Virus record (IMG/VR): IMGVR_UViG_3300025736_000175 | Span: 1-25,658 of that record | Length of the DNA: 25,658 nucleotides | From: a virus | Direction: 5' to 3' (one strand) | The notes under the pieces: model-generated | Seen by the model: the letters and a program-made list of their open reading frames with translations, nothing else | Database searches by the model: none | Told to the model about the DNA's origin: nothing | Program-made: the position numbers and the translations under genes | In this document: piece after piece, positions 3,532-25,658 of the stretch | Layout of the letters: each line of letters starts with the position of its first letter | How positions within the stretch are numbered: position 1 is the stretch's first letter

Positions 3532-4335
3532 TTACTTCCTTGCCTCATTGTTTATGCCGGTTATCGATAACGGCAAATCAGCTTTGAGGTATTTCTTAAC
3601 CTGTTCCTCACTTAACCCCCGTCTTTTGATGAAGTCTTTAGCTGCATCATCTAAGGGAGGAAGATCGGAATCGGTATCTTTACCTGTACTTCTAATTTCG
3701 TCTCCTTCAACTCCACTTCCCAAGGGAGGTGTTTTTTCACCATTGCCCCTAATTGGGACTTTCTTCTTTTGAAAACTGAGTTGCTTATTGTAAAAAGCCC
3801 TCGTAGCCTTATGATAGTTAGCTTCGGCATCCCTCGTTCCATCACTTGAATGCACAAAATTAAAGTTAGCTTCCAATTCTTTTATTATTGCCGCATGAAT
3901 ATCTCCGTCTTCATCTAAGCCAAACCCATCTATTGTTCTGCCATATGCTATCTGATATTTGTTTTTACTGGCATCCTCTTCATCTCTTTGTGCTTTCAAT
4001 TCCTGTCTCAATGTCTTTCTAGTAACAAATTCCTCTTCAGTCTCTTCCTCACTGCCAGCACCGGATTGTAAACTGAGTAATCTCTCAACTGAACCGGAGA
4101 TATCCTCCAACCGTTCATTGGTACTTCTTTCAATGGCACTGATTCTTCTGCCTAATGCAGAGCGTTCCCTGTGTTCTTTTTCCTTATCTGATAATTCTGC
4201 ATCTATCTCGGTTTGTTCCTCTTCTGTTCCGATTGTTTCTGTTGTTTCAGCCTCTTGCGTTCCTTCTACTTCTTTAATTTCACCATCAGTCACAGTAGCA
4301 TCAGCTACTTTTTCTTCCTTTGGCTTTGTTGTCAT
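3532..4335 (-). CDS. Probable capsid scaffolding protein
   Basis: A 267-residue, highly charged protein. Residues 1-45 are acidic and low complexity (E, T, D). A predicted coiled coil with SALGRRISAIERSTNERLED follows to about residue 100, then helical and disordered stretches. A compact C terminus (residues 222-260) contains AAKDFIKRRGLSEEQVKKYL. Acidic N terminus, coiled coil, basic helical tail and a place between portal and capsid genes are typical of phage scaffold proteins, in which the C-terminal helix contacts the shell. No protease motif is visible. The identification rests on composition and position, not on a sequence family. Confidence 0.7.
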   Translation of the reverse strand: MTTKPKEEKVADATVTDGEIKEVEGTQEAETTETIGTEEEQTEIDAELSDKEKEHRERSALGRRISAIERSTNERLEDISGSVERLLSLQSGAGSEEETEEEFVTRKTLRQELKAQRDEEDASKNKYQIAYGRTIDGFGLDEDGDIHAAIIKELEANFNFVHSSDGTRDAEANYHKATRAFYNKQLSFQKKKVPIRGNGEKTPPLGSGVEGDEIRSTGKDTDSDLPPLDDAAKDFIKRRGLSEEQVKKYLKADLPLSITGINNEARK

Positions 4336-4339
4336 TGTT

Positions 4340-4669
4340 CTATCCTTCCTTTAATTGTTTAAGGTTTCTATTGTACTCATTTATCTTACTCACCCATCTC
4401 AGTGATAGATTCTTTGCTGCCCTGAAATCTGCCCTGTCCTTATCGGTAGCACTTTCATCGATAATTTTATCCAGTTTGCTTTCCATCGTGTCGATAAGGT
4501 CCGTTAAGAGTTCGCTCCCTAATGGAGAATTAAAGGCGTTAAGAAATTGCTCATTCTTGCCGAGTGCTGACAATAACCTCCCTGCCATCTCCTTGCCTTT
4601 TTTCCCATGTTTGTTGATATAATCTTCTATATCCATTAAAGTTCTGTTTGGTTTAATAGTATCCGCCAC
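4340..4669 (-). CDS. Small helical protein after the portal gene
   Basis: A 109-residue, largely alpha-helical and charged protein with no recognised domain. Helices such as IEDYINKHGKKGKEMAGRLL and DLIDTMESKLDKIIDE suggest a coiled or bundled small protein. Its start overlaps the portal end by 17 nt and its ribosome site lies inside the portal gene, so the two are translationally coupled. It ends 4 nt before the scaffold-like gene. A head-assembly accessory role is plausible from position only. Confidence 0.7.
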   Translation of the reverse strand: MADTIKPNRTLMDIEDYINKHGKKGKEMAGRLLSALGKNEQFLNAFNSPLGSELLTDLIDTMESKLDKIIDESATDKDRADFRAAKNLSLRWVSKINEYNRNLKQLKEG

Positions 4670-6638
4670 CGGCTCCCTCCCTTGTTTGAGTTTCCATCCC
4701 TGACATCGGGACTTGGTTTTGATTACTCATGCCACCACCCATGCCAGACTGTTCTCCTGCCTGTTCTTCCCCCTGGCCACCCTTTTGTTGTATCGGAATA
4801 TCAGGGTTAAGAAATATGTTCGCAAAATTAGTAGGTTCATCTCCCATGAGTTTGAACATTTCAAGAAGAATATAATTAACCATTTTTGCACTATCAGGAT
4901 GTTGGATCTGCATGACATAGCCTAATGCTTGCGTCCAGGTTTTGAGCTTCATACCCTTAGACTGCTCTGTCTCTATGGATTGGGATAAAGGCTTATAGGT
5001 ATAGTTTAAGACAGGGTTAAAGGAATAAACTTTCTCTCCCATCAGCTTAACCGCAGTTTGTTCTGTGGCAAACGCCCATGTCATTTGTTGGATCATCCAG
5101 TAAAGCTCTGTTAAGAAGGTAAACTCAAAGGTGAGAGATTTATAATTGGTGCGTATATTGGTACTACCTTCGGCTCCGGCCACAGCCGTTGCGGTCGTGC
5201 TTGCCTTACCAGGTAAATCTCCCATCGTTGTGGGAAAGATCGAATTAACCTGCTGCATCTTGTTAGTTAGTATTCCAATTTGCGATAAGGCCCCTTGAAT
5301 ATCATCACTGATTGTAAATTCCTGCAAATCCTTTTCGGGATCTTCCAATTCTATTACATGCTCGGGTTCAAAAAAGATTGTATTGTTATCTTCGGTTACA
5401 TCACGCTTGCCTTTTAAGGTTGGTAATGTAGCGAGCATTACCCTGTCTTGGCTTATATTGAAAGTATCATCTATACCTATCTGAATTTCACGGGAATATT
5501 TGCCATCTCCTATCCCATTATCTTTCGTAGGGTGGATATAACATAAACCACGAATAACAGGCTTAAACGGAACTCCCTCAGAACTTACGTTCGGTGTGGG
5601 GTGATATGCTATAAGGGTAGAATGTCCGGCAGATACGGCAAATATAATTACCATTTCTATGAACTCGGCCTTGGGTTTGATAGTGCCAAACTGATCTATC
5701 CCTGGTTCGGCCTTGATAGGAGTATCATTCTCATCTCGTTCTTTTACTATTGCCCAGGACCTGCCATAGCGTTTCAATATATCAAAGTATTTCTCTCCGG
5801 CATAGTCTGTGCGGTTTTGTGTATTCTCTTTATTGTCTGTTTCCTTTGAAGTTTGGGTATCAGGTTCACCTGACATTTCTTCCAAAAGATGAAGATTAAA
5901 ATAACCTGCCTTACTTTGATCCGCTTTGAGTTTGCTAAGAGATTGTTCTTTTCTGGTAATAACCCAGTCTTTCTCCTGTAATGAGTATGTATAGCGATTA
6001 TCAGTGAAGACATTTCGGGGATCTAATATTTCATAATTAAATCTATCTATAACAGGAATATCCCCATAAACAGGTTCCTCTTCGATCTCCGTGGCTGGAA
6101 TTTGAATAGATGGATCTGTAATCTTGTTGCCGTAGGTATCGACATCGAGTTCAATAGTTTTATGTGTTACCCCAATCACCTCTCTTTTAGTTTTCTGTTC
6201 CCACCAACATTCAGCATAGACATAGCCGGAAAGATTGTTGAGCACTTTACCACGGACAAATTTCTGATAATGGTAGAGGTGCTTCTGGTTGAGGGTACGA
6301 TTGATTAGCTCTTTAGTAGCAGCAGCAGCATCTAAGGATTCTTGCCCCTCGTCCTCTACATAGGTCTCCACAAAATCTCTGGTCTGGAAGTATTGATTAA
6401 CGTCTATGGAAGTCTGGGTAAGGATGTGTGAGGGAAATTCAGGTATAGAAATATCACTTTGCCAGTCATAGTTCTTCTCTTCCCGTTCTGAATCTAAGAG
6501 GGCTATATATGCTTCGAAGTCTCTATTGTCAGCCTGGCGATTAATTTGAGAGGTAATATATTCACCGGATACTATACGTTTGGCTAACTCGGACTCTATA
6601 TTCTCATCAAAATTGTGTTTGGTTTTTGGTTTGGCCAT
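4653..6638 (-). CDS. Portal (head-tail connector) protein
   Basis: A 661-residue protein forming the ring through which DNA enters and leaves the head. Its size and pattern fit the larger P22/T7-type connectors: an N-terminal helical clip region (RDFEAYIALLDSER, NYDWQSDISIPEFP), a wing with HLYHYQKFVRGKVLNNLSGY, a beta region with DRFNYEILDPRNVFTDNRYT, and a helical stem around residues 440-530. The C-terminal 60 residues are Gly/Gln-rich and disordered (GGQGEEQAGEQSGMGGGMS). The terminase-portal-scaffold-capsid order supports the call. It overlaps the upstream small basic gene by one base (TAATG), so translation is coupled. Assignment is by pattern, not search. Confidence 0.85.
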   Translation of the reverse strand: MAKPKTKHNFDENIESELAKRIVSGEYITSQINRQADNRDFEAYIALLDSEREEKNYDWQSDISIPEFPSHILTQTSIDVNQYFQTRDFVETYVEDEGQESLDAAAATKELINRTLNQKHLYHYQKFVRGKVLNNLSGYVYAECWWEQKTKREVIGVTHKTIELDVDTYGNKITDPSIQIPATEIEEEPVYGDIPVIDRFNYEILDPRNVFTDNRYTYSLQEKDWVITRKEQSLSKLKADQSKAGYFNLHLLEEMSGEPDTQTSKETDNKENTQNRTDYAGEKYFDILKRYGRSWAIVKERDENDTPIKAEPGIDQFGTIKPKAEFIEMVIIFAVSAGHSTLIAYHPTPNVSSEGVPFKPVIRGLCYIHPTKDNGIGDGKYSREIQIGIDDTFNISQDRVMLATLPTLKGKRDVTEDNNTIFFEPEHVIELEDPEKDLQEFTISDDIQGALSQIGILTNKMQQVNSIFPTTMGDLPGKASTTATAVAGAEGSTNIRTNYKSLTFEFTFLTELYWMIQQMTWAFATEQTAVKLMGEKVYSFNPVLNYTYKPLSQSIETEQSKGMKLKTWTQALGYVMQIQHPDSAKMVNYILLEMFKLMGDEPTNFANIFLNPDIPIQQKGGQGEEQAGEQSGMGGGMSNQNQVPMSGMETQTREGAGGGYY

Positions 6639-18510: not shown

Positions 18511-18903
18511 ATGAGTAAATACTGGCTAACACCACCAGATATAATGAAAAAACTTAATGATGAATTTCACTTTGACTTTGACCCCTGCCCTTATCCAAAA
18601 CCTATTGACTTCAATAGTCTGGAAACTGATTGGGGTAAAATGAATTATGTTAATCCACCATTTAGACCAAAAGAAAACAATGGGTTTGGGCCTACTGCAT
18701 TTGTTAGGAAATCCATAGAAGAACAAGCAAAAGGAAAATCATCAGTAATATTGATACCGACTCAATCTTATGTGAACTTACTTTTAGAGGCTAATGCTGA
18801 ATTAAGGTCAATGGGCAGAGTTAGATGGTTAGATGTCGAGTCAGATGAACCATGTAAAAGTCCATCTCCTATAACTTGTTTTATATTATATGGGAATAAG
18901 TAA
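18511..18903 (+). CDS. Phage N6-adenine methyltransferase, Dam-like, short form
   Basis: A 130-residue protein whose ATG directly follows the ATPase stop. It has the order seen in phage Dam-like enzymes: YWLTPPDIMKKLNDEFHFDF, then DPCPYP, then the catalytic NPPF in MNYVNPPFRP (residues 44-53), then SSVILIPTQSY and a C-terminal VRWLDVES. It would methylate adenine in DNA, perhaps to resist host restriction or time replication. It is shorter than the usual 150-180 residues. The N-terminal SAM-binding part seems minimal, and the end abuts the GC-rich island, so C-terminal loss is possible. Confidence 0.8.
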   Translation: MSKYWLTPPDIMKKLNDEFHFDFDPCPYPKPIDFNSLETDWGKMNYVNPPFRPKENNGFGPTAFVRKSIEEQAKGKSSVILIPTQSYVNLLLEANAELRSMGRVRWLDVESDEPCKSPSPITCFILYGNK

Positions 18904-18906
18904 CTT

Positions 18907-18970
18907 TGTACTGTGTGCCGCCGCCGTCCCCCCCGCCCGCGTTGCAGGCTCACGGCGCGGCCATGGTACA
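18907..18970. other. GC-rich island with strong inverted repeat
   Basis: About 45 of 56 bases at 18911-18966 are G or C, against AT-rich flanks. TGTAC (18907), GCCGC (18917) and GCCG (18923) can pair with GTACA (18966), GCGGC (18957) and CGGC (18953), closing a 26-nt C-rich loop. No T-run follows, so it is not an ordinary terminator. An orphan GGAGGG near 18992 has no start codon after it. The rest of 18971-19063 shows only the ribosome site of the next gene. Confidence 0.6.
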
Positions 18971-19791: not shown

Positions 19792-20427
19792 ATGAATAAA
19801 GTTGCTGATATTACAGGTCAAAGATTTGGAAGGCTTGAAGTTTTATCAAGACAAACATCTGATCGAAAAGGCCAATCTGTATGGCTTTGTCAATGTGATT
19901 GTGGAAATAAGTGCATCATTCAGGGGGTGAATCTACGAAGTGGAAGGACTAAGTCTTGTGGTTGTCTACAAAAGGAAATTACAGCACAGAGAAACAAAAT
20001 AATTAGCACTTCACACGGAATGTCAAATACCAAAATATATAATACCTGGGCAGGCATGCTTAAACGATGTAGAAATAAAAAACATCCAGCTTATAAATAT
20101 TATGGAGCTAGAGGTATTACAGTTTGTGATAGGTGGCTTAAAATCGAAAACTTCTATGAAGATATGGGAGACCCGCCAAAGGGATTAACACTTGAAAGAA
20201 TTGATAATGATAGAGAGTATTCTCCTGACAACTGTAAATGGGCTACATATAAGGAACAAGCTAATAATAAAAGTAGTAACGTAATTATTAAATATAAAGA
20301 CCAGAAATTTACAATAAGCCAATGGGCAAAGGAATTAGGAATTGATTATGCCACCCTGCGATGTAGATTACGTTTATATGATTGGCCTATAGAAAGAGCA
20401 TTAACAGAAAAAGTGAGGACAGCATAA
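19792..20427 (+). CDS. HNH-type homing endonuclease with N-terminal zinc finger
   Basis: A 211-residue protein. The N terminus reads GQRFGRLEVLSRQTSDRKGQ, then a zinc knuckle WLCQCDCGN with SCGCLQ, the common entry module of this phage HNH family. The core has YNTWAGMLKRCRNKKHPAYK, YYGARGITVCDRW, and LERIDNDREYSPDNCKWAT, the equivalent of the HNH active site. A C-terminal DNA-binding helix (ISQWAKELGIDYATLRCRLR) follows. Such genes are mobile and insert between phage genes. It overlaps the next gene by one base (TAATG). Confidence 0.85.
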   Translation: MNKVADITGQRFGRLEVLSRQTSDRKGQSVWLCQCDCGNKCIIQGVNLRSGRTKSCGCLQKEITAQRNKIISTSHGMSNTKIYNTWAGMLKRCRNKKHPAYKYYGARGITVCDRWLKIENFYEDMGDPPKGLTLERIDNDREYSPDNCKWATYKEQANNKSSNVIIKYKDQKFTISQWAKELGIDYATLRCRLRLYDWPIERALTEKVRTA

Positions 20428-21012: not shown

Positions 21013-21051
21013 GAGGATGCAAAATAATTTAAAACATACCAGGAGGGCTTG

Positions 21052-21477
21052 ATGAAAATAAATCATATTAAAGAAAACAATCCAAACTGGAAAGGTGGCA
21101 TGAGATATGACGGAGATGGCTATAAAACTATTAGGATAGGGACTTCATATTATCCTTATCATCGTTTTATGGTTGAACAGTTGCTTGGGAGAAAATTACC
21201 AGATCATGCGGTTGTTCATCATTTTAATGGAAAAAAACAAGATAACAAATTTAGCAATTTTATAGTTTGTGAAGATAACTCTTATCATATGCTTCTTCAT
21301 CAAAGAAAACGAGCCTATGATGCCTGCGGTCATGCTGATTGGCGGAAATGTAAATTTTGCAAAGAATATGATGACCCAATTAATTTATGGATTTCAGATA
21401 AACCTAAATCAGCAGCATATCATAGGGAATGTAGTGCACGATATGCACGTGAAAGGAGAGCAAAATGCAAGAATTAG
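21052..21477 (+). CDS. HNH homing endonuclease
   Basis: A 141-residue protein starting at ATG 21052 behind AGGAGGG; a TTG one codon earlier is less likely. The opening NNPNWKGGMRYDGDGYKTIR is the NUMOD-like module of phage HNH nucleases. YHRFMVEQLLGRKLPDHAVV followed by HHFNGKKQDNKFSNFIVCED is the HNH core. A zinc pair CKFCKEYD lies near the C terminus. It overlaps the following coiled-coil gene by 13 nt, so it is inserted tightly between recombination genes. Confidence 0.85.
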   Translation: MKINHIKENNPNWKGGMRYDGDGYKTIRIGTSYYPYHRFMVEQLLGRKLPDHAVVHHFNGKKQDNKFSNFIVCEDNSYHMLLHQRKRAYDACGHADWRKCKFCKEYDDPINLWISDKPKSAAYHRECSARYARERRAKCKN

Positions 21478-22463
21478 CAAAGATAGACAAACCAAGCCAA
21501 GCCATTGTTTTATACAAGATCACACCTAAAGAAATAGCAGAAAGATTAAAAGAGTATGATCAGTTAAAAGTAATTGAGGCAGATACGAAATCCTATAAAA
21601 AAGTTCGAAGTGCTCTCACTTCTATCATCACAACACGAGTAGAAGTTGATAAAAGACGAAAACAGTTAGGAGAAGATGCTCGTAAACTGGTTTCGAATAT
21701 CAATCAAGCAGCTAAAATGCTTATTGAGCCAATGACTCCTTATGAAGATCGATTTAAATCTGAACTTAATACGGAGGATGATCGTAAAACAGAGATTAAA
21801 GCGGTAAAAGAGGCTAAAGAGCAGGCAAGAGTGGACAAAATACGCTCTAAGATCAACGATCTCCAAGCTGTGCTTATTACCATTATCACTCTACCCTCAA
21901 ATAAGATACAAGCTATACAAATGGAGGTAGAATCAATAGAAATAAGTGTGATTGACTATATGGAATTCACTGAGGAAGCTGAAAGGGTGAAAGCAAATGT
22001 TCTTAATACCATCCAGGATTATATGAAAGTCACGATTGAAAATGAAAAGGAAGATGCTGAACGTAAGATAGAGGCAGAGAGGTTTGAAAAGATAAGGGTA
22101 GAACAAGAAGTTACTCAAAAGAAGATCGATGAGGCTAATCAGAAATTAAAGGAAAAGGAAGCGATATTGGAAAAGAAAGAGTGGGAAAGAACAGAGAAGA
22201 TACGGATTGCTAAGGAGATGGAAGAGGAGAAAGTTAAAGTGGAAAAAGAACAGGAAGTAGAGGCAGAGAGGCTTGAAAAGGATATTGCTGAACAGAATAG
22301 ATTGAAACCTGATAAGGAGAGATTGATTGAATACGCTGATAAACTTTTCAATATTACCCATCCTAATGTCAAAGCTAAAAGTTCAAAAGAACTATTGATT
22401 GAAATGAATAACAGGTTATTTAAATTAATCACAGGGTTTAAGAATCAGATAAACAAACTATGA
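21465..22463 (+). CDS. Coiled-coil protein, DUF1351-like, of the recombination module
   Basis: A 332-residue protein. Residues 1-110 include EIAERLKEYDQLKVIEADTK and an Arg/Lys-rich helix (VDKRRKQLGEDARKLVSNIN), the pattern of DUF1351-type phage proteins found with SSB and annealing genes. From about 170 to 285 the sequence is a long charged coiled coil rich in E and K. The last 50 residues form a small helical domain. It probably assists the neighbouring recombination and replication proteins. The family name is my recollection, not a search result. AAGGAGAG precedes the ATG. Confidence 0.65.
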   Translation: MQELAKIDKPSQAIVLYKITPKEIAERLKEYDQLKVIEADTKSYKKVRSALTSIITTRVEVDKRRKQLGEDARKLVSNINQAAKMLIEPMTPYEDRFKSELNTEDDRKTEIKAVKEAKEQARVDKIRSKINDLQAVLITIITLPSNKIQAIQMEVESIEISVIDYMEFTEEAERVKANVLNTIQDYMKVTIENEKEDAERKIEAERFEKIRVEQEVTQKKIDEANQKLKEKEAILEKKEWERTEKIRIAKEMEEEKVKVEKEQEVEAERLEKDIAEQNRLKPDKERLIEYADKLFNITHPNVKAKSSKELLIEMNNRLFKLITGFKNQINKL

Positions 22464-22476
22464 AAGGTGGGATCTC

Positions 22477-22959
22477 ATGCGTATGGTGCCAAGAATCAGT
22501 TTCACTCCTAAGATCGATATTCCTGATGGGTTTATAATGGTAGTCGATACCCGGGAACAAAAACCATTATTCAAACCTAAACCCTGGATTGTAGAAGCTG
22601 GGTTAAACTCCGGTGATTATAGCATTCAAGGGTTTGAAACTGTAATAACCATTGAACGGAAGTCTATTCCTGATTTGCTAGGGACACTTGGCAAGGGTAG
22701 GATCAGATTTGAAAAGGAACTAAACAGGATGAGTGAATATAAATGGAAAGGGTTATTGATAGAGGGATTAGAAAATGATGTGTATCAACCAAATGACTTT
22801 TCATCCATGCACCCAAATAGTATCTATCATTCCCTTGCTGCTATTGAGACGAAATGGGGGATGTGTATTTACTATGCTAAGGATAAGAAGCATGCACGTT
22901 GGTGGGTATTAAGTCGCCTTTGTAAACTTTACAAATACTTACGACAAGGAGATATATAA
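22477..22959 (+). CDS. ERCC4-type (XPF/Mus81-like) nuclease
   Basis: A 160-residue single-domain nuclease. VVDTREQKP (residues 22-30), NSGDYSI (44-50) and ITIERKSIPDLLG (58-70) make up the ERCC4 active site GDx(n)ERKx3D, with D24, D47, E60, R61, K62 and D66. The following GRIRFEKELNRM and the C-terminal SLAAIETKWGMCIYY helix complete the fold. These enzymes cut branched or flap DNA. It lies upstream of an XPD/DinG-type helicase with one HNH gene between, suggesting that the two act together in DNA processing. Confidence 0.88.
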   Translation: MRMVPRISFTPKIDIPDGFIMVVDTREQKPLFKPKPWIVEAGLNSGDYSIQGFETVITIERKSIPDLLGTLGKGRIRFEKELNRMSEYKWKGLLIEGLENDVYQPNDFSSMHPNSIYHSLAAIETKWGMCIYYAKDKKHARWWVLSRLCKLYKYLRQGDI

Positions 22960-23457
22960 ATGAAAAGGATTCCGTTAACACAAGGTAAGGTAGCTTTAAT
23001 TGACGATGAAGATTATGAATTAATAAATGATTACCCGAATTGTTGGTACACAAGACAATGTAATCATACCGCTTATGCAATGGCTAATCCACGAATCAAT
23101 GGTAAAAAAACTACTGTTTTAATGCACCGTTTTATCATGAAGGCTGAGAAGGGGAAAGAAGTAGATCATATAAATCACAATGGATTAGATAATAGAAGAT
23201 GTAATTTAAGAATTGTAAATAGAACGCAACAACAATGGAATAGGCAAAAATATAATACAAATTCACCCTCTATTTTTAAAAGAGTATATTGGCATAAATC
23301 AAGAAAGACATGGAGGGTAGATATAAAAACAGATAAGAGACTTTTTCTTGGTTATTTTAAAAATGAAATAGATGCAGCTAAAGCCTATGATAGGGCAGCA
23401 ATCAAATACTTTGATGAATATGCTTGTTTGAATTTTCCGAGGAATGAATCATGCTAA
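22960..23457 (+). CDS. HNH homing endonuclease with AP2 domain
   Basis: A 165-residue protein. The HNH core is around VLMHRFIMKAEKGKEVDHIN, then HNGLDNRRCNLRIVNRTQQQ (residues 49-90). A C-terminal AP2-like DNA-binding domain reads VYWHKSRKTWRVDIKTD, then FLGYFKNEIDAAKAYDRAAI. It starts directly after the ERCC4 stop, behind AAGGAGAT, and overlaps the helicase start by 7 nt. HNH-AP2 proteins are classic free-standing phage homing endonucleases. Confidence 0.9.
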   Translation: MKRIPLTQGKVALIDDEDYELINDYPNCWYTRQCNHTAYAMANPRINGKKTTVLMHRFIMKAEKGKEVDHINHNGLDNRRCNLRIVNRTQQQWNRQKYNTNSPSIFKRVYWHKSRKTWRVDIKTDKRLFLGYFKNEIDAAKAYDRAAIKYFDEYACLNFPRNESC

Positions 23458-24491
23458 TTACTTTAGGAGTGCATCAAGGTAAGCCATTCAGAGAATCCCA
23501 GGAAATCGCCTATGAATTCATCACCAATAGCACCAAACGGTTTATATGTTTATCGGCTCCACCAGGTATTGGAAAGAGTGTGGTGGGCTTTGAATCGATC
23601 AATTCCCCCTTTTGGTATGTATGCAGTAGTATTTCCCTCGAACATCAACTTATCCACGATTTCCCCAAGGCATCATTATTAAAAGGGAGATCAAATTACC
23701 CCTGTGATATGTTTGAGAGTGCTGATCTATGTATAATAACTCCCCCTTGTGATAATTGTGAATATGCAGAGGCTAAGGATGCTGCCCTATTCAATAAACA
23801 TAGTATTCTTAACTTTCATTATTTTCTCTATGCGGCTAATTTCGCTGGGTTCAGTACTAAGGATGAGGGAATGAGAAATATTATAATTGATGAAGCTGAT
23901 GATAGAGATATGGCTTTAGTTGAATTCATATCCTTTGTATTCAGTATGAAACAAATGAAATATTTAAACATTGCACAATATCCACCTGATAAGAAAACAG
24001 TAATTGATTCGTTTGTCAAATGGATGGAACCTATAGGAAATAAGTTAAAGAATCAGATTGTAAACATTGCTGATCAAGTGGCTGGGATAAAAACTAAACT
24101 AAAAAATCATGTGGGTTTAAGTTCAGATGATATGAGGACGTTGCGTAGGGAGCAAAGACTATCAAGTGTGGCATGGAAGGTAAACTTTTTAAACAAGCAG
24201 GATCTCACTAATGGTAACTGGGTGTATTATAATGATAAGAATAAGATTATATTGAAACCTAAGTGGTTAACAAGGGAATTAAGTAATACTTTCTTATTCA
24301 ACCATGGGAAAAGATTTCTATTTATGTCTGCCACATTGCCACCTAAGCCTGTATTTTGTGGGTTATATGGGTTTGAACCTGATGAAGTGGATTATTTGGA
24401 ATTAGATCATCCGTTTAAGGTTGAGAATAGAAGGGTGGTGTATAGGCCAAGATTTAGTTTGACTAAGAAGGAATTGGATAGGGAGGGGTAA
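23451..24491 (+). CDS. N-terminal half of a split XPD/DinG-type superfamily 2 helicase
   Basis: A 346-residue protein that carries only the first motor domain. Walker A is APPGIGKS (36-43). Four cysteines at 85, 94, 100 and 103 lie where XPD and DinG hold an Fe-S cluster. Walker B is IIIDEAD (144-150), and motif III is FLFMSATLP near residue 290. It stops at KKELDREG, just after the first domain (NRRVVYRPR). Motifs IV to VI are encoded separately at 25254-25658, in the same frame, beyond a Thg1-like gene. The stop codon lies one base before that gene's start, and its ribosome site GGGAGGGG is made from the last helicase codons. The two halves may associate, or the helicase may be inactivated. 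Confidence 0.88.
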   Translation: MLITLGVHQGKPFRESQEIAYEFITNSTKRFICLSAPPGIGKSVVGFESINSPFWYVCSSISLEHQLIHDFPKASLLKGRSNYPCDMFESADLCIITPPCDNCEYAEAKDAALFNKHSILNFHYFLYAANFAGFSTKDEGMRNIIIDEADDRDMALVEFISFVFSMKQMKYLNIAQYPPDKKTVIDSFVKWMEPIGNKLKNQIVNIADQVAGIKTKLKNHVGLSSDDMRTLRREQRLSSVAWKVNFLNKQDLTNGNWVYYNDKNKIILKPKWLTRELSNTFLFNHGKRFLFMSATLPPKPVFCGLYGFEPDEVDYLELDHPFKVENRRVVYRPRFSLTKKELDREG

Positions 24492-24492
24492 A

Positions 24493-25230
24493 ATGAGAGA
24501 AGATTCAATCGGAAACAGAATGAAAGAAAATTATGAAAGTCGATATAGAATTAAATTAACAAGGCGTATGCCTGTTATTATTCGACTTGATGGTAAGGCA
24601 TTTCATACACTAACCAAGAAATGTGAAAAACCTTTTGATACTAACTTTTCTGAAACAATGAAATTAACAGGCTTAATGCTTATGTCTGAAATTCAAGGAG
24701 CTAAATGTGCATACATTCAATCCGATGAAATATCTTTCCTGATAACTGATTTTGACCGATTAACAACTGAGGGATGGTTTGATTATAACTTGCAAAAAAT
24801 AGTTTCTGTATCAGCAGGAATTGCATCAGCCTATTTTACAAAAAATTGGGAGCCATTGGGGGATGGACATGGAATGATAGCAGTATTTGATTCAAGAGCT
24901 TTTAATATTCCAAAAGAAGAAGTGTGTAATTATTTTATATGGCGACAACAAGATTGGGTTAGAAACTCAATACAAATGTTAGCACAATCCCATTACTCGC
25001 ATAAAGAATTATATGGAAGAAATCAACCTGCAATGCACGAAATGTTGCATGAAAAAGGTATTAATTGGGCAAACTTAGAAGATAGATGGAAAAATGGCAT
25101 TTATTTAGATTCAACTGAAAGTGAAATCGAGTCCATAGATGCACCGATATTTACAAAAGATCGTGAATGTATTGAAAAACATCTTAAACCCACTGAGGAA
25201 CAATCTATAAAATCCTCAGAAAGCCTCTGA
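24493..25230 (+). CDS. Thg1-like protein (tRNA-His guanylyltransferase family, 3'-5' polymerase)
   Basis: A 245-residue protein, the normal family length. VIIRLDGKAFHTL (28-40) carries the first metal-binding Asp (D33). AYIQSDEISFLI (73-84) carries D78 and E79 of the palm-type active site. MIAVFDSRAFNIP and the C-terminal YFIWRQQDWVRNSIQMLA, with HKELYGRNQPAMHEMLHEKG, are typical of Thg1-like proteins. Family members add nucleotides to RNA in the 3' to 5' direction, either G-1 of tRNA-His or repair of 5'-truncated tRNAs. All catalytic residues are present. It interrupts the helicase gene, and no tRNA gene is in the window. The substrate is unknown. Confidence 0.9.
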   Translation: MREDSIGNRMKENYESRYRIKLTRRMPVIIRLDGKAFHTLTKKCEKPFDTNFSETMKLTGLMLMSEIQGAKCAYIQSDEISFLITDFDRLTTEGWFDYNLQKIVSVSAGIASAYFTKNWEPLGDGHGMIAVFDSRAFNIPKEEVCNYFIWRQQDWVRNSIQMLAQSHYSHKELYGRNQPAMHEMLHEKGINWANLEDRWKNGIYLDSTESEIESIDAPIFTKDRECIEKHLKPTEEQSIKSSESL

Positions 25231-25253
25231 AATTTCTAAGAAAGGCGTAACCC

Positions 25254-25658
25254 ATGAACAAAACATTAGTAAAGGAGATACGAAATGAAATCAGTATTAT
25301 ACTGGATGAGGAGTGTGGTCGTGGGATTATACATTGCACTTCTTACGCTCTTGGCAATACTCTTTTCGACCTTAACACTCGTCTTATATTCCACAATTCG
25401 CTGGACAAAGAAGTACAGTTTCAGAAGTTTATCAACACTCCTGGATCGGTATTTGTAAGTCCAAGTAGTACAAGAGGGGTGGATTTAAAAGGAGAGCTTG
25501 CACGATGGGCTGTTATATTAAAATGTCCTTATCTGAGCTTAGGAGATTATCACATTCAACAAAGATTGTTCAACAGTGGAAAATGGGGTCAAATGTGGTA
25601 TTCAAGTCAGGCCATTGATAACATAGTGCAAGCAAGTGGAAGGATTGTAAGAGATTTT
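25254..25658 (+). CDS. C-terminal half of the split helicase (cut by window end)
   Basis: A partial ORF of 135 codons running off the window, starting at an ATG behind GAAAGG. It reads KTLVKEIRNEISIILDEECG, GIIHCTSYALGNTLFDL (motif IV), VFVSPSSTRGVDLKGELARW (motif V) and IDNIVQASGRIVRDF (motif VI). These are the second-domain motifs of DinG/XPD helicases that the upstream ORF lacks. It has its own start and ribosome site, so it can be made as a separate chain. The frame is the same as that of the N-terminal half. Confidence 0.88.
   Translation, partial: MNKTLVKEIRNEISIILDEECGRGIIHCTSYALGNTLFDLNTRLIFHNSLDKEVQFQKFINTPGSVFVSPSSTRGVDLKGELARWAVILKCPYLSLGDYHIQQRLFNSGKWGQMWYSSQAIDNIVQASGRIVRDF

What the first reader, a model, noticed from the sequence alone, without database searches (positions are those of the whole stretch)
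23451..25658. XPD/DinG-type helicase split between its two motor domains by an inserted gene
The ORF at 23451-24491 has motifs I, II and III plus a four-Cys Fe-S-like cluster. The ORF at 25254 has motifs IV, V and VI. Together they make one helicase. The halves are in the same frame and the intervening 24489-25253 is 765 bases, an exact multiple of three. KKELDREG at the end of one half runs naturally into NKTLVKEI of the other, so little or no coding sequence seems lost. Split but functional phage genes are known where homing endonuclease genes have inserted (Aeromonas phage Aeh1 nrdA split by mobE). A helicase cut at the domain boundary would be a new example.
Basis: partly seen in the sequence, partly recalled or inferred. 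Interest (0 to 1): 0.85.

Follow-up and report, generated by a model that had tools for sequence, protein, structure and literature searches.

The report
Phage helicase split by tRNA-repair gene
In this phage fragment the gene for a DNA-unwinding enzyme is cut in two by a gene for a tRNA-editing enzyme (Thg1), inserted so neatly that no essential part seems lost, so the two halves probably have to come together as separate proteins to work.

Summary
ORF 23451-24491 and ORF 25254-25658 (cut by the contig end) are the N and C parts of one phage XPD/DinG-type helicase. They match one PHROG profile at positions 31-408 and 407-543. All tested helicase motifs and four Fe-S-type cysteines are present. 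Of 335 relatives held, 326 read straight through this linker and none is split there by a gene. The nearest relative, which also has an ERCC4 nuclease gene upstream, is intact. So one gene is ancestral and the split is derived.

It is a complete Thg1-type tRNA(His) guanylyltransferase, not a homing endonuclease. No intein or intron is present. Its third-position GC (0.22) matches the nearby HNH genes (0.23), not the helicase halves (0.34 and 0.33).

The cut lies just after the first beta-strand of motor domain 2, slightly inside that domain. Nothing is missing; about 4-5 residues are redundant. Predicted folds suggest the N half's tail donates that strand to the C half.

Most likely the halves are made separately and assemble (inferred, untested). 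This is a new variant of the known "genes-in-pieces" kind. Seven related loci have this helicase family interrupted at motif II, by split inteins where read.

The parts
23451..24491 (+). N part of XPD/DinG-type helicase (346 aa): motor domain 1, four-Cys cluster, and the first beta-strand of motor domain 2
   Evidence: phrog_2488 31-408/579, E 5e-26; AlphaFold pLDDT 86.5, Foldseek best matches XPD/DinG
23556..23579 (+). motif I (Walker A) APPGIGKS
   Evidence: direct reading; G39, G41, K42 invariant in 52-sequence alignment A5
23703..23759 (+). four Cys (85, 94, 100, 103), Fe-S-type cluster
   Evidence: C103 invariant and C85, C100 nearly invariant in A5; C85, C94, C103 invariant in the 9-sequence alignment A2; iron binding not tested
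23889..23900 (+). motif II DEAD
   Evidence: D147, E148 invariant
24324..24338 (+). motif III MSATL
   Evidence: S293, T295 nearly invariant
24429..24488 (+). N-half tail RRVVYRPRFSLTKKELDREG; contains first strand of motor domain 2 and half of the inter-domain linker
   Evidence: equivalent residues 329-335 form a strand in the intact relative's model but no strand in the N half alone
24493..25230 (+). complete Thg1-type tRNA(His) guanylyltransferase gene inserted in the helicase (245 aa), starting 1 nt after the N-half stop
   Evidence: Pfam Thg1 E 8.5e-29; phrog_4717 E 2.3e-84; 4KGK E 3.9e-60
25231..25253 (+). 23-nt gap after Thg1 with a short Shine-Dalgarno-like AAGG 8 nt before the C-half ATG
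25254..25658 (+). C part of the helicase (motor domain 2; motifs IV-VI), 3' end cut by contig end
   Evidence: phrog_2488 407-543/579, E 2e-21; Pfam Helicase_C_2 E 3.7e-11
25323..25346 (+). motif IV GIIHCTSY
   Evidence: H27 invariant, G24 nearly invariant
25458..25484 (+). motif V SPSSTRGVD
   Evidence: G75 invariant; S69, P70, S71 nearly invariant
25629..25652 (+). motif VI QASGRIVR
   Evidence: Q126, R130, R133 invariant
22960..23457 (+). HNH-AP2 homing-type endonuclease gene, overlapping the helicase start by 7 nt
   Evidence: HNH_3 3.7e-7; phrog_99 2.2e-37

Best explanation
A Thg1-type tRNA(His) guanylyltransferase gene has inserted into the inter-domain linker of a tailed phage's single-gene XPD/DinG-type helicase, between the first strand and first helix of motor domain 2. 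Shown: the split, its precision, the intact relatives and the identity of the insert. Inferred: all three proteins come from one transcript. The N half ends at a stop next to the Thg1 start (its last codons hold the Shine-Dalgarno-like site for Thg1), and the C half starts from its own ATG. The two helicase chains then associate, the N half's tail probably giving its strand to the C half's sheet, to form a working two-chain helicase. Thg1 probably arrived by recombination, possibly helped by the neighbouring HNH homing-type endonucleases, and is a passenger rather than part of the helicase.
For: Halves join end to end on one profile, and both fall at residue 430 of T. acidophilum XPD 4A15. 326 of 335 loci (270 distinct ORFs) read through this linker, and the others are explained by sequence ends or in-frame stops. 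Nearest relative L001 is intact at 530 aa with ERCC4 upstream and shares a 4-residue insert near motif VI. Linker 43 aa against 34-45, in register through IDxT. At the conserved columns that the window covers it departs at 3, while L001 departs at 9 of 45. Thg1 third-position GC 0.220, HNH genes 0.229-0.231, helicase halves 0.343 and 0.328. Thirty Thg1 relatives up to 67% identical carry no helicase in their flanks. No terminator-like site in the region; Shine-Dalgarno-like sites before all three ORFs. Strand seen in the intact model, absent in the N half alone. Precedents: PMC2988022.
Against: One contig only, with no second isolate and no reads. The C half is truncated by the contig end, so its last ~45 residues are unseen. 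The N half is somewhat further from outgroups than L001 is (22.5% against 25.3% identity), which allows some relaxed constraint. The start signal of the C half is short (AAGG). No test of association or activity. No target-site duplication: the longest shared 7-mer at the two edges is reached in 118 of 500 shuffles. The role of the HNH genes is conjecture.
Confidence: 0.62

Rival explanations
1. The insertion inactivated the helicase; both halves are still open only because the event is recent, and the phage lives without it or has another helicase.
For: Only one contig seen; N half slightly faster than L001; short start signal before the C half; only 25.7 kb of the genome is held, so a second helicase cannot be excluded.
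Against: All tested motifs kept; no coding residue lost; the N half ends by a stop right at the Thg1 start and the C half opens with an in-register ATG one codon after an in-frame stop, which a random cut would rarely give. A blunt insertion would not itself supply a start codon and Shine-Dalgarno-like site.
Confidence: 0.25
2. Assembly chimera: the contig wrongly joins the N half, a Thg1 gene and a C half.
For: Metagenomic contig; it ends 405 bases into the C half; no reads available.
Against: Halves meet exactly on the profile and have the same nearest relative (33% and 42.5% to L001, best in both); similar base composition of both halves; breakpoints fall at stop and start codons on both sides.
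Confidence: 0.08
3. The halves are rejoined by splicing (split intein, or an intron carrying the Thg1 gene).
For: Split inteins do occur in this same helicase family at motif II in related loci.
Against: No intein domain in any of the three ORFs at E up to 10; no Rfam intron at gathering, and nothing but chance-level hits at E up to 5; the insert is nearly all Thg1 coding sequence, with 1 nt before and 23 nt after it, leaving little room for a ribozyme core.
Confidence: 0.02
4. Two separate helicase genes are the ancestral state of this lineage.
For: None found.
Against: 326 of 335 loci, and the nearest relative among them, are single genes across the linker.
Confidence: 0.03

Closest known systems
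Aeromonas phage Aeh1 nrdA split by mobE, T4 topoisomerase gene 39/60 (mobA), and phage 25 gene 43A/43B (PMC2988022)
   Same: A phage DNA-metabolism gene cut into two coding regions by an inserted free-standing gene; in Aeh1 and phage 25 the pieces are reported to give active enzyme
   Different: There the insert is a homing endonuclease (in phage 25 possibly placed in an already split gene); here it is Thg1, and the host gene is a superfamily 2 helicase cut between its motor domains. Activity here is untested
Fractured genes with split inteins (Dassa et al. 2009, known to me only by citation; phage MIJ3 polB, PMC6892783)
   Same: Gene in two ORFs with a third ORF between them
   Different: No intein halves in the window; the third ORF is not a nuclease
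phrog_2488 phage DNA helicases / DinG-XPD family (6FWR, 4A15)
   Same: Motifs I-VI, four Cys, overall fold
   Different: Two chains instead of one
Thg1-like protein 4KGK and phage tRNA-His guanylyltransferases (phrog_4717)
   Same: Full-length match, D and DE catalytic residues aligned
   Different: The others looked at are free-standing genes; this one sits inside another gene
HEG-islands (PMC10448857)
   Same: Homing endonuclease genes near core replication/recombination genes and possible cargo movement
   Different: HNH genes lie on one side only in what is visible; no homologous island found

Membership tests
XPD/DinG-type superfamily 2 helicase (phrog_2488) | Motifs I, II, III and IV, V, VI in order | tested here: met
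XPD/DinG-type superfamily 2 helicase (phrog_2488) | Four-Cys Fe-S cluster in motor domain 1 | tested here: met
   C85, C94, C100, C103 aligned with family cysteines; actual Fe-S binding not testable here
XPD/DinG-type superfamily 2 helicase (phrog_2488) | XPD/DinG fold | tested here: met
   N half: Foldseek E 1.7e-11 to XPD. The C half itself was not modelled; intact relative L001 full chain E 2.9e-23 to DinG
XPD/DinG-type superfamily 2 helicase (phrog_2488) | Single polypeptide (usual in the family, not required for the helicase fold) | tested here: not met
   two ORFs separated by Thg1
XPD/DinG-type superfamily 2 helicase (phrog_2488) | ATP-dependent unwinding | not testable with these tools
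   needs purified proteins
Thg1 tRNA(His) guanylyltransferase (inserted gene) | Thg1 domain above Pfam cut-off with catalytic D and DE | tested here: met
   100.5 bits against cut-off 29.2; alignment to 4KGK
Gene split by homing endonuclease (nrdA/mobE kind) | Inserted gene is a homing endonuclease | tested here: not met
   insert is Thg1
Gene split by homing endonuclease (nrdA/mobE kind) | Contiguous homologue in relatives, insert without loss of coding sequence | tested here: met
Gene split by homing endonuclease (nrdA/mobE kind) | Pieces assemble to active enzyme | not testable with these tools
   no complex modelling or bench test available
Fractured gene with split intein | Intein N and C halves at the junctions | tested here: not met
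   no intein domain at E up to 10; positive control found in L214
Group I/II intron interruption | Intron RNA in the insert | tested here: not met
   no Rfam match at gathering, only chance-level hits at E up to 5

The most novel reading that the evidence does not exclude
A naturally two-chain XPD/DinG-type helicase, held together by a strand donated from the N half's tail, and created by a non-endonuclease metabolic gene (Thg1) settling inside it. That would show that gene splitting in phages is not confined to self-mobile endonucleases, and that the two motor domains of a superfamily 2 helicase can be separate natural subunits.
Probability: 0.5. Interest if true: 0.7.

Novelty: new variant of a known kind. 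Interest (0 to 1): 0.5.

Why it matters
Genes-in-pieces test how proteins tolerate being cut and how mobile genes find harmless sites. The known phage cases read here involve homing endonucleases or split inteins. A helicase cut between its motor domains by a tRNA-editing gene would be a natural two-subunit superfamily 2 motor and would show that passenger genes can do the same. The wider search also shows that this helicase family is interrupted independently at a second site, motif II, by split inteins with nuclease genes.

Tried and rejected
Homing endonuclease as the insert: rejected. Split intein: rejected, though found in relatives at another site. Intron: rejected. Ancestral two genes: rejected. 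Target-site duplication at the insert edges: only a shared CTAAGAA, which 118 of 500 shuffles reach. Thg1 generally living inside helicases: not seen in 30 viral loci or in four annotated phages. Dassa et al. 2009 is not held. Literature searches for split phage helicases gave nothing relevant in the hits read.

Full report
What was checked. The window is a whole viral record of 25,658 bases. It is from a tailed phage: a major head protein match at 1380-2306 and a weak portal match at 4653-6638. The finding lies at its right end.

One helicase in two pieces. The two ORFs match a single phage helicase profile, phrog_2488, at positions 31-408 and 407-543 of 579. Profiles of the two halves meet at the same residue, 430, of Thermoplasma XPD 4A15. 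Motifs I, II, III and four cysteines are in the first ORF; motifs IV, V, VI are in the second. A model of the N half (mean pLDDT 86.5) and one of the intact relative L001 (89.8) both find XPD and DinG structures as best matches. The C half itself was not modelled.

The split is derived. The nearest relative found, L001, has one uninterrupted helicase ORF of 530 aa, an ERCC4 nuclease gene upstream as in the window, and no Thg1 match in the 12.4 kb held. It is 33% and 42.5% identical to the two halves, the best match of both among 11 intact relatives. Further scans gave 335 loci with this helicase: 326 run straight through the HD1/HD2 linker, representing 270 distinct ORFs. The rest are the window itself and its copy L002, sequences cut by an end, and L292/L293, which have in-frame TAG codons. 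None has a gene inserted at the linker.

Nothing was lost. Between the conserved arginine and the GIIH motif the window has 20 + 23 residues; 11 intact relatives have 34-45. In the 52-sequence alignment the N half runs to LDRE, in register with the family's IDxT, and then adds one glycine; the C half starts MNKT, also in register with IDxT, and continues so that its TLVK stands where the family has TLPK. So the linker is complete and about four residues are present twice. At the DNA level this is not a recognisable duplication. Of 45 columns conserved in at least 90% of 158 intact sequences, the window departs at 3 that it covers (5 others lie beyond the contig end and 2 at the N-terminal edge are gapped); L001 departs at 9.

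Where the cut lies. In the intact relative's model the residues matching the N half's tail (329-335) form a beta-strand, followed by a loop and a helix from 342; the cut falls in the first turn of that helix. In the model of the N half alone this tail is not a strand and has low confidence. By analogy with other superfamily 2 helicases (general knowledge) this is the first strand of motor domain 2. The cut is therefore slightly inside domain 2, and the N half may hold on to the C half by donating that strand. This is inference from two single-chain models; coordinates and a complex model were not available.

The inserted gene. It is a complete tRNA(His) guanylyltransferase of the Thg1 family: Pfam Thg1 100.5 bits against a cut-off of 29.2, phrog_4717 E 2e-84, solved relative 4KGK E 4e-60 over almost the full length with the D and DE catalytic residues aligned. 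Thg1 is common in phages, at least 127 records, and the relatives looked at, up to 67% identical, are free-standing. Its third-position GC is 0.220, like the three HNH genes of the window (0.229-0.231) and unlike the helicase halves (0.343, 0.328) or the ERCC4 gene (0.360). Its start codon follows the N half's stop by one base, and its Shine-Dalgarno-like GGAGG lies in the last codons of the N half. The C half's ATG follows 23 bases after the Thg1 stop, with AAGG eight bases before it. No terminator-like site was found in 22400-25658. No intein or intron was found.

How it most likely works. Shown: one ancestral gene, cut by a Thg1 gene without loss, both halves open and conserved at the motifs. 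Inferred: co-transcription, separate translation and assembly into a two-chain helicase. The precedents in T4-like phages, where nrdA, topoisomerase and DNA polymerase genes are split and at least the nrdA and gene 43 pieces are active, make this reasonable (PMC2988022). The precision of the stop and start on either side speaks against a random inactivating insertion and against a chimera. How Thg1 got there is not known. Three HNH endonuclease genes lie within 3.7 kb upstream, one directly abutting the helicase, and such genes are known to mark boundaries of exchange between phages (PMC10448857), but no direct trace links them to the insertion.

A second kind of split in the same family. Seven viral loci (L214, L223, L229, L233, L235, L237, L238) have this helicase interrupted at about motif II. 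Of the four whose sequences were read (L214, L223, L235, L237), all break at DE|CH with intein-like N and C ends, and L214, L223 and L235 have a ~300 aa ORF between, with a TnsA-like nuclease match. Hint and intein-splicing domains were confirmed by Pfam in L214. This matches the described 'fractured gene' arrangement and served as a positive control: the same search finds no intein in the window.

Verdict. A real, precise split of a phage helicase gene; a new variant of a known kind because the insert is not an endonuclease and the host gene is a superfamily 2 helicase cut between its motors. It rests on one contig, and function of the halves is untested.

Noticed in passing
L214 584-3537; also L223, L229, L233, L235, L237, L238: The same helicase family is interrupted at about motif II in seven viral loci. 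In the four read, the ends look like split intein halves (break at DE|CH), three of them with a ~300 aa TnsA-like nuclease ORF between.
   Followed up: partly
L292/L293 2983-2985 and 3301-3303; L290 2005-2007: Helicase frames interrupted only by in-frame TAG codons, which suggests phages that read TAG as an amino acid. L047 has one in-frame TAA at 3629-3631.
   Followed up: no
L129 1884-3693: A Haloquadratum MAG copy of a related helicase is broken into overlapping frames near profile position 284, probably a frameshift.
   Followed up: no
window 19792-20427, 21049-21477, 22960-23457: Three HNH endonuclease genes within 3.7 kb, directly upstream of the split helicase, all with low third-position GC like Thg1.
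   Followed up: partly
window 18905-18965: A short, very GC-rich stretch (GCCGCCGCCGTCCCCCCCGCCCGCG...) in an otherwise AT-rich genome, right after the Dam-like gene; origin unclear, possibly an artefact.
   Followed up: no
window 18511-18903: A short Dam-like adenine methyltransferase ORF (130 aa) covering only part of its profiles.
   Followed up: no
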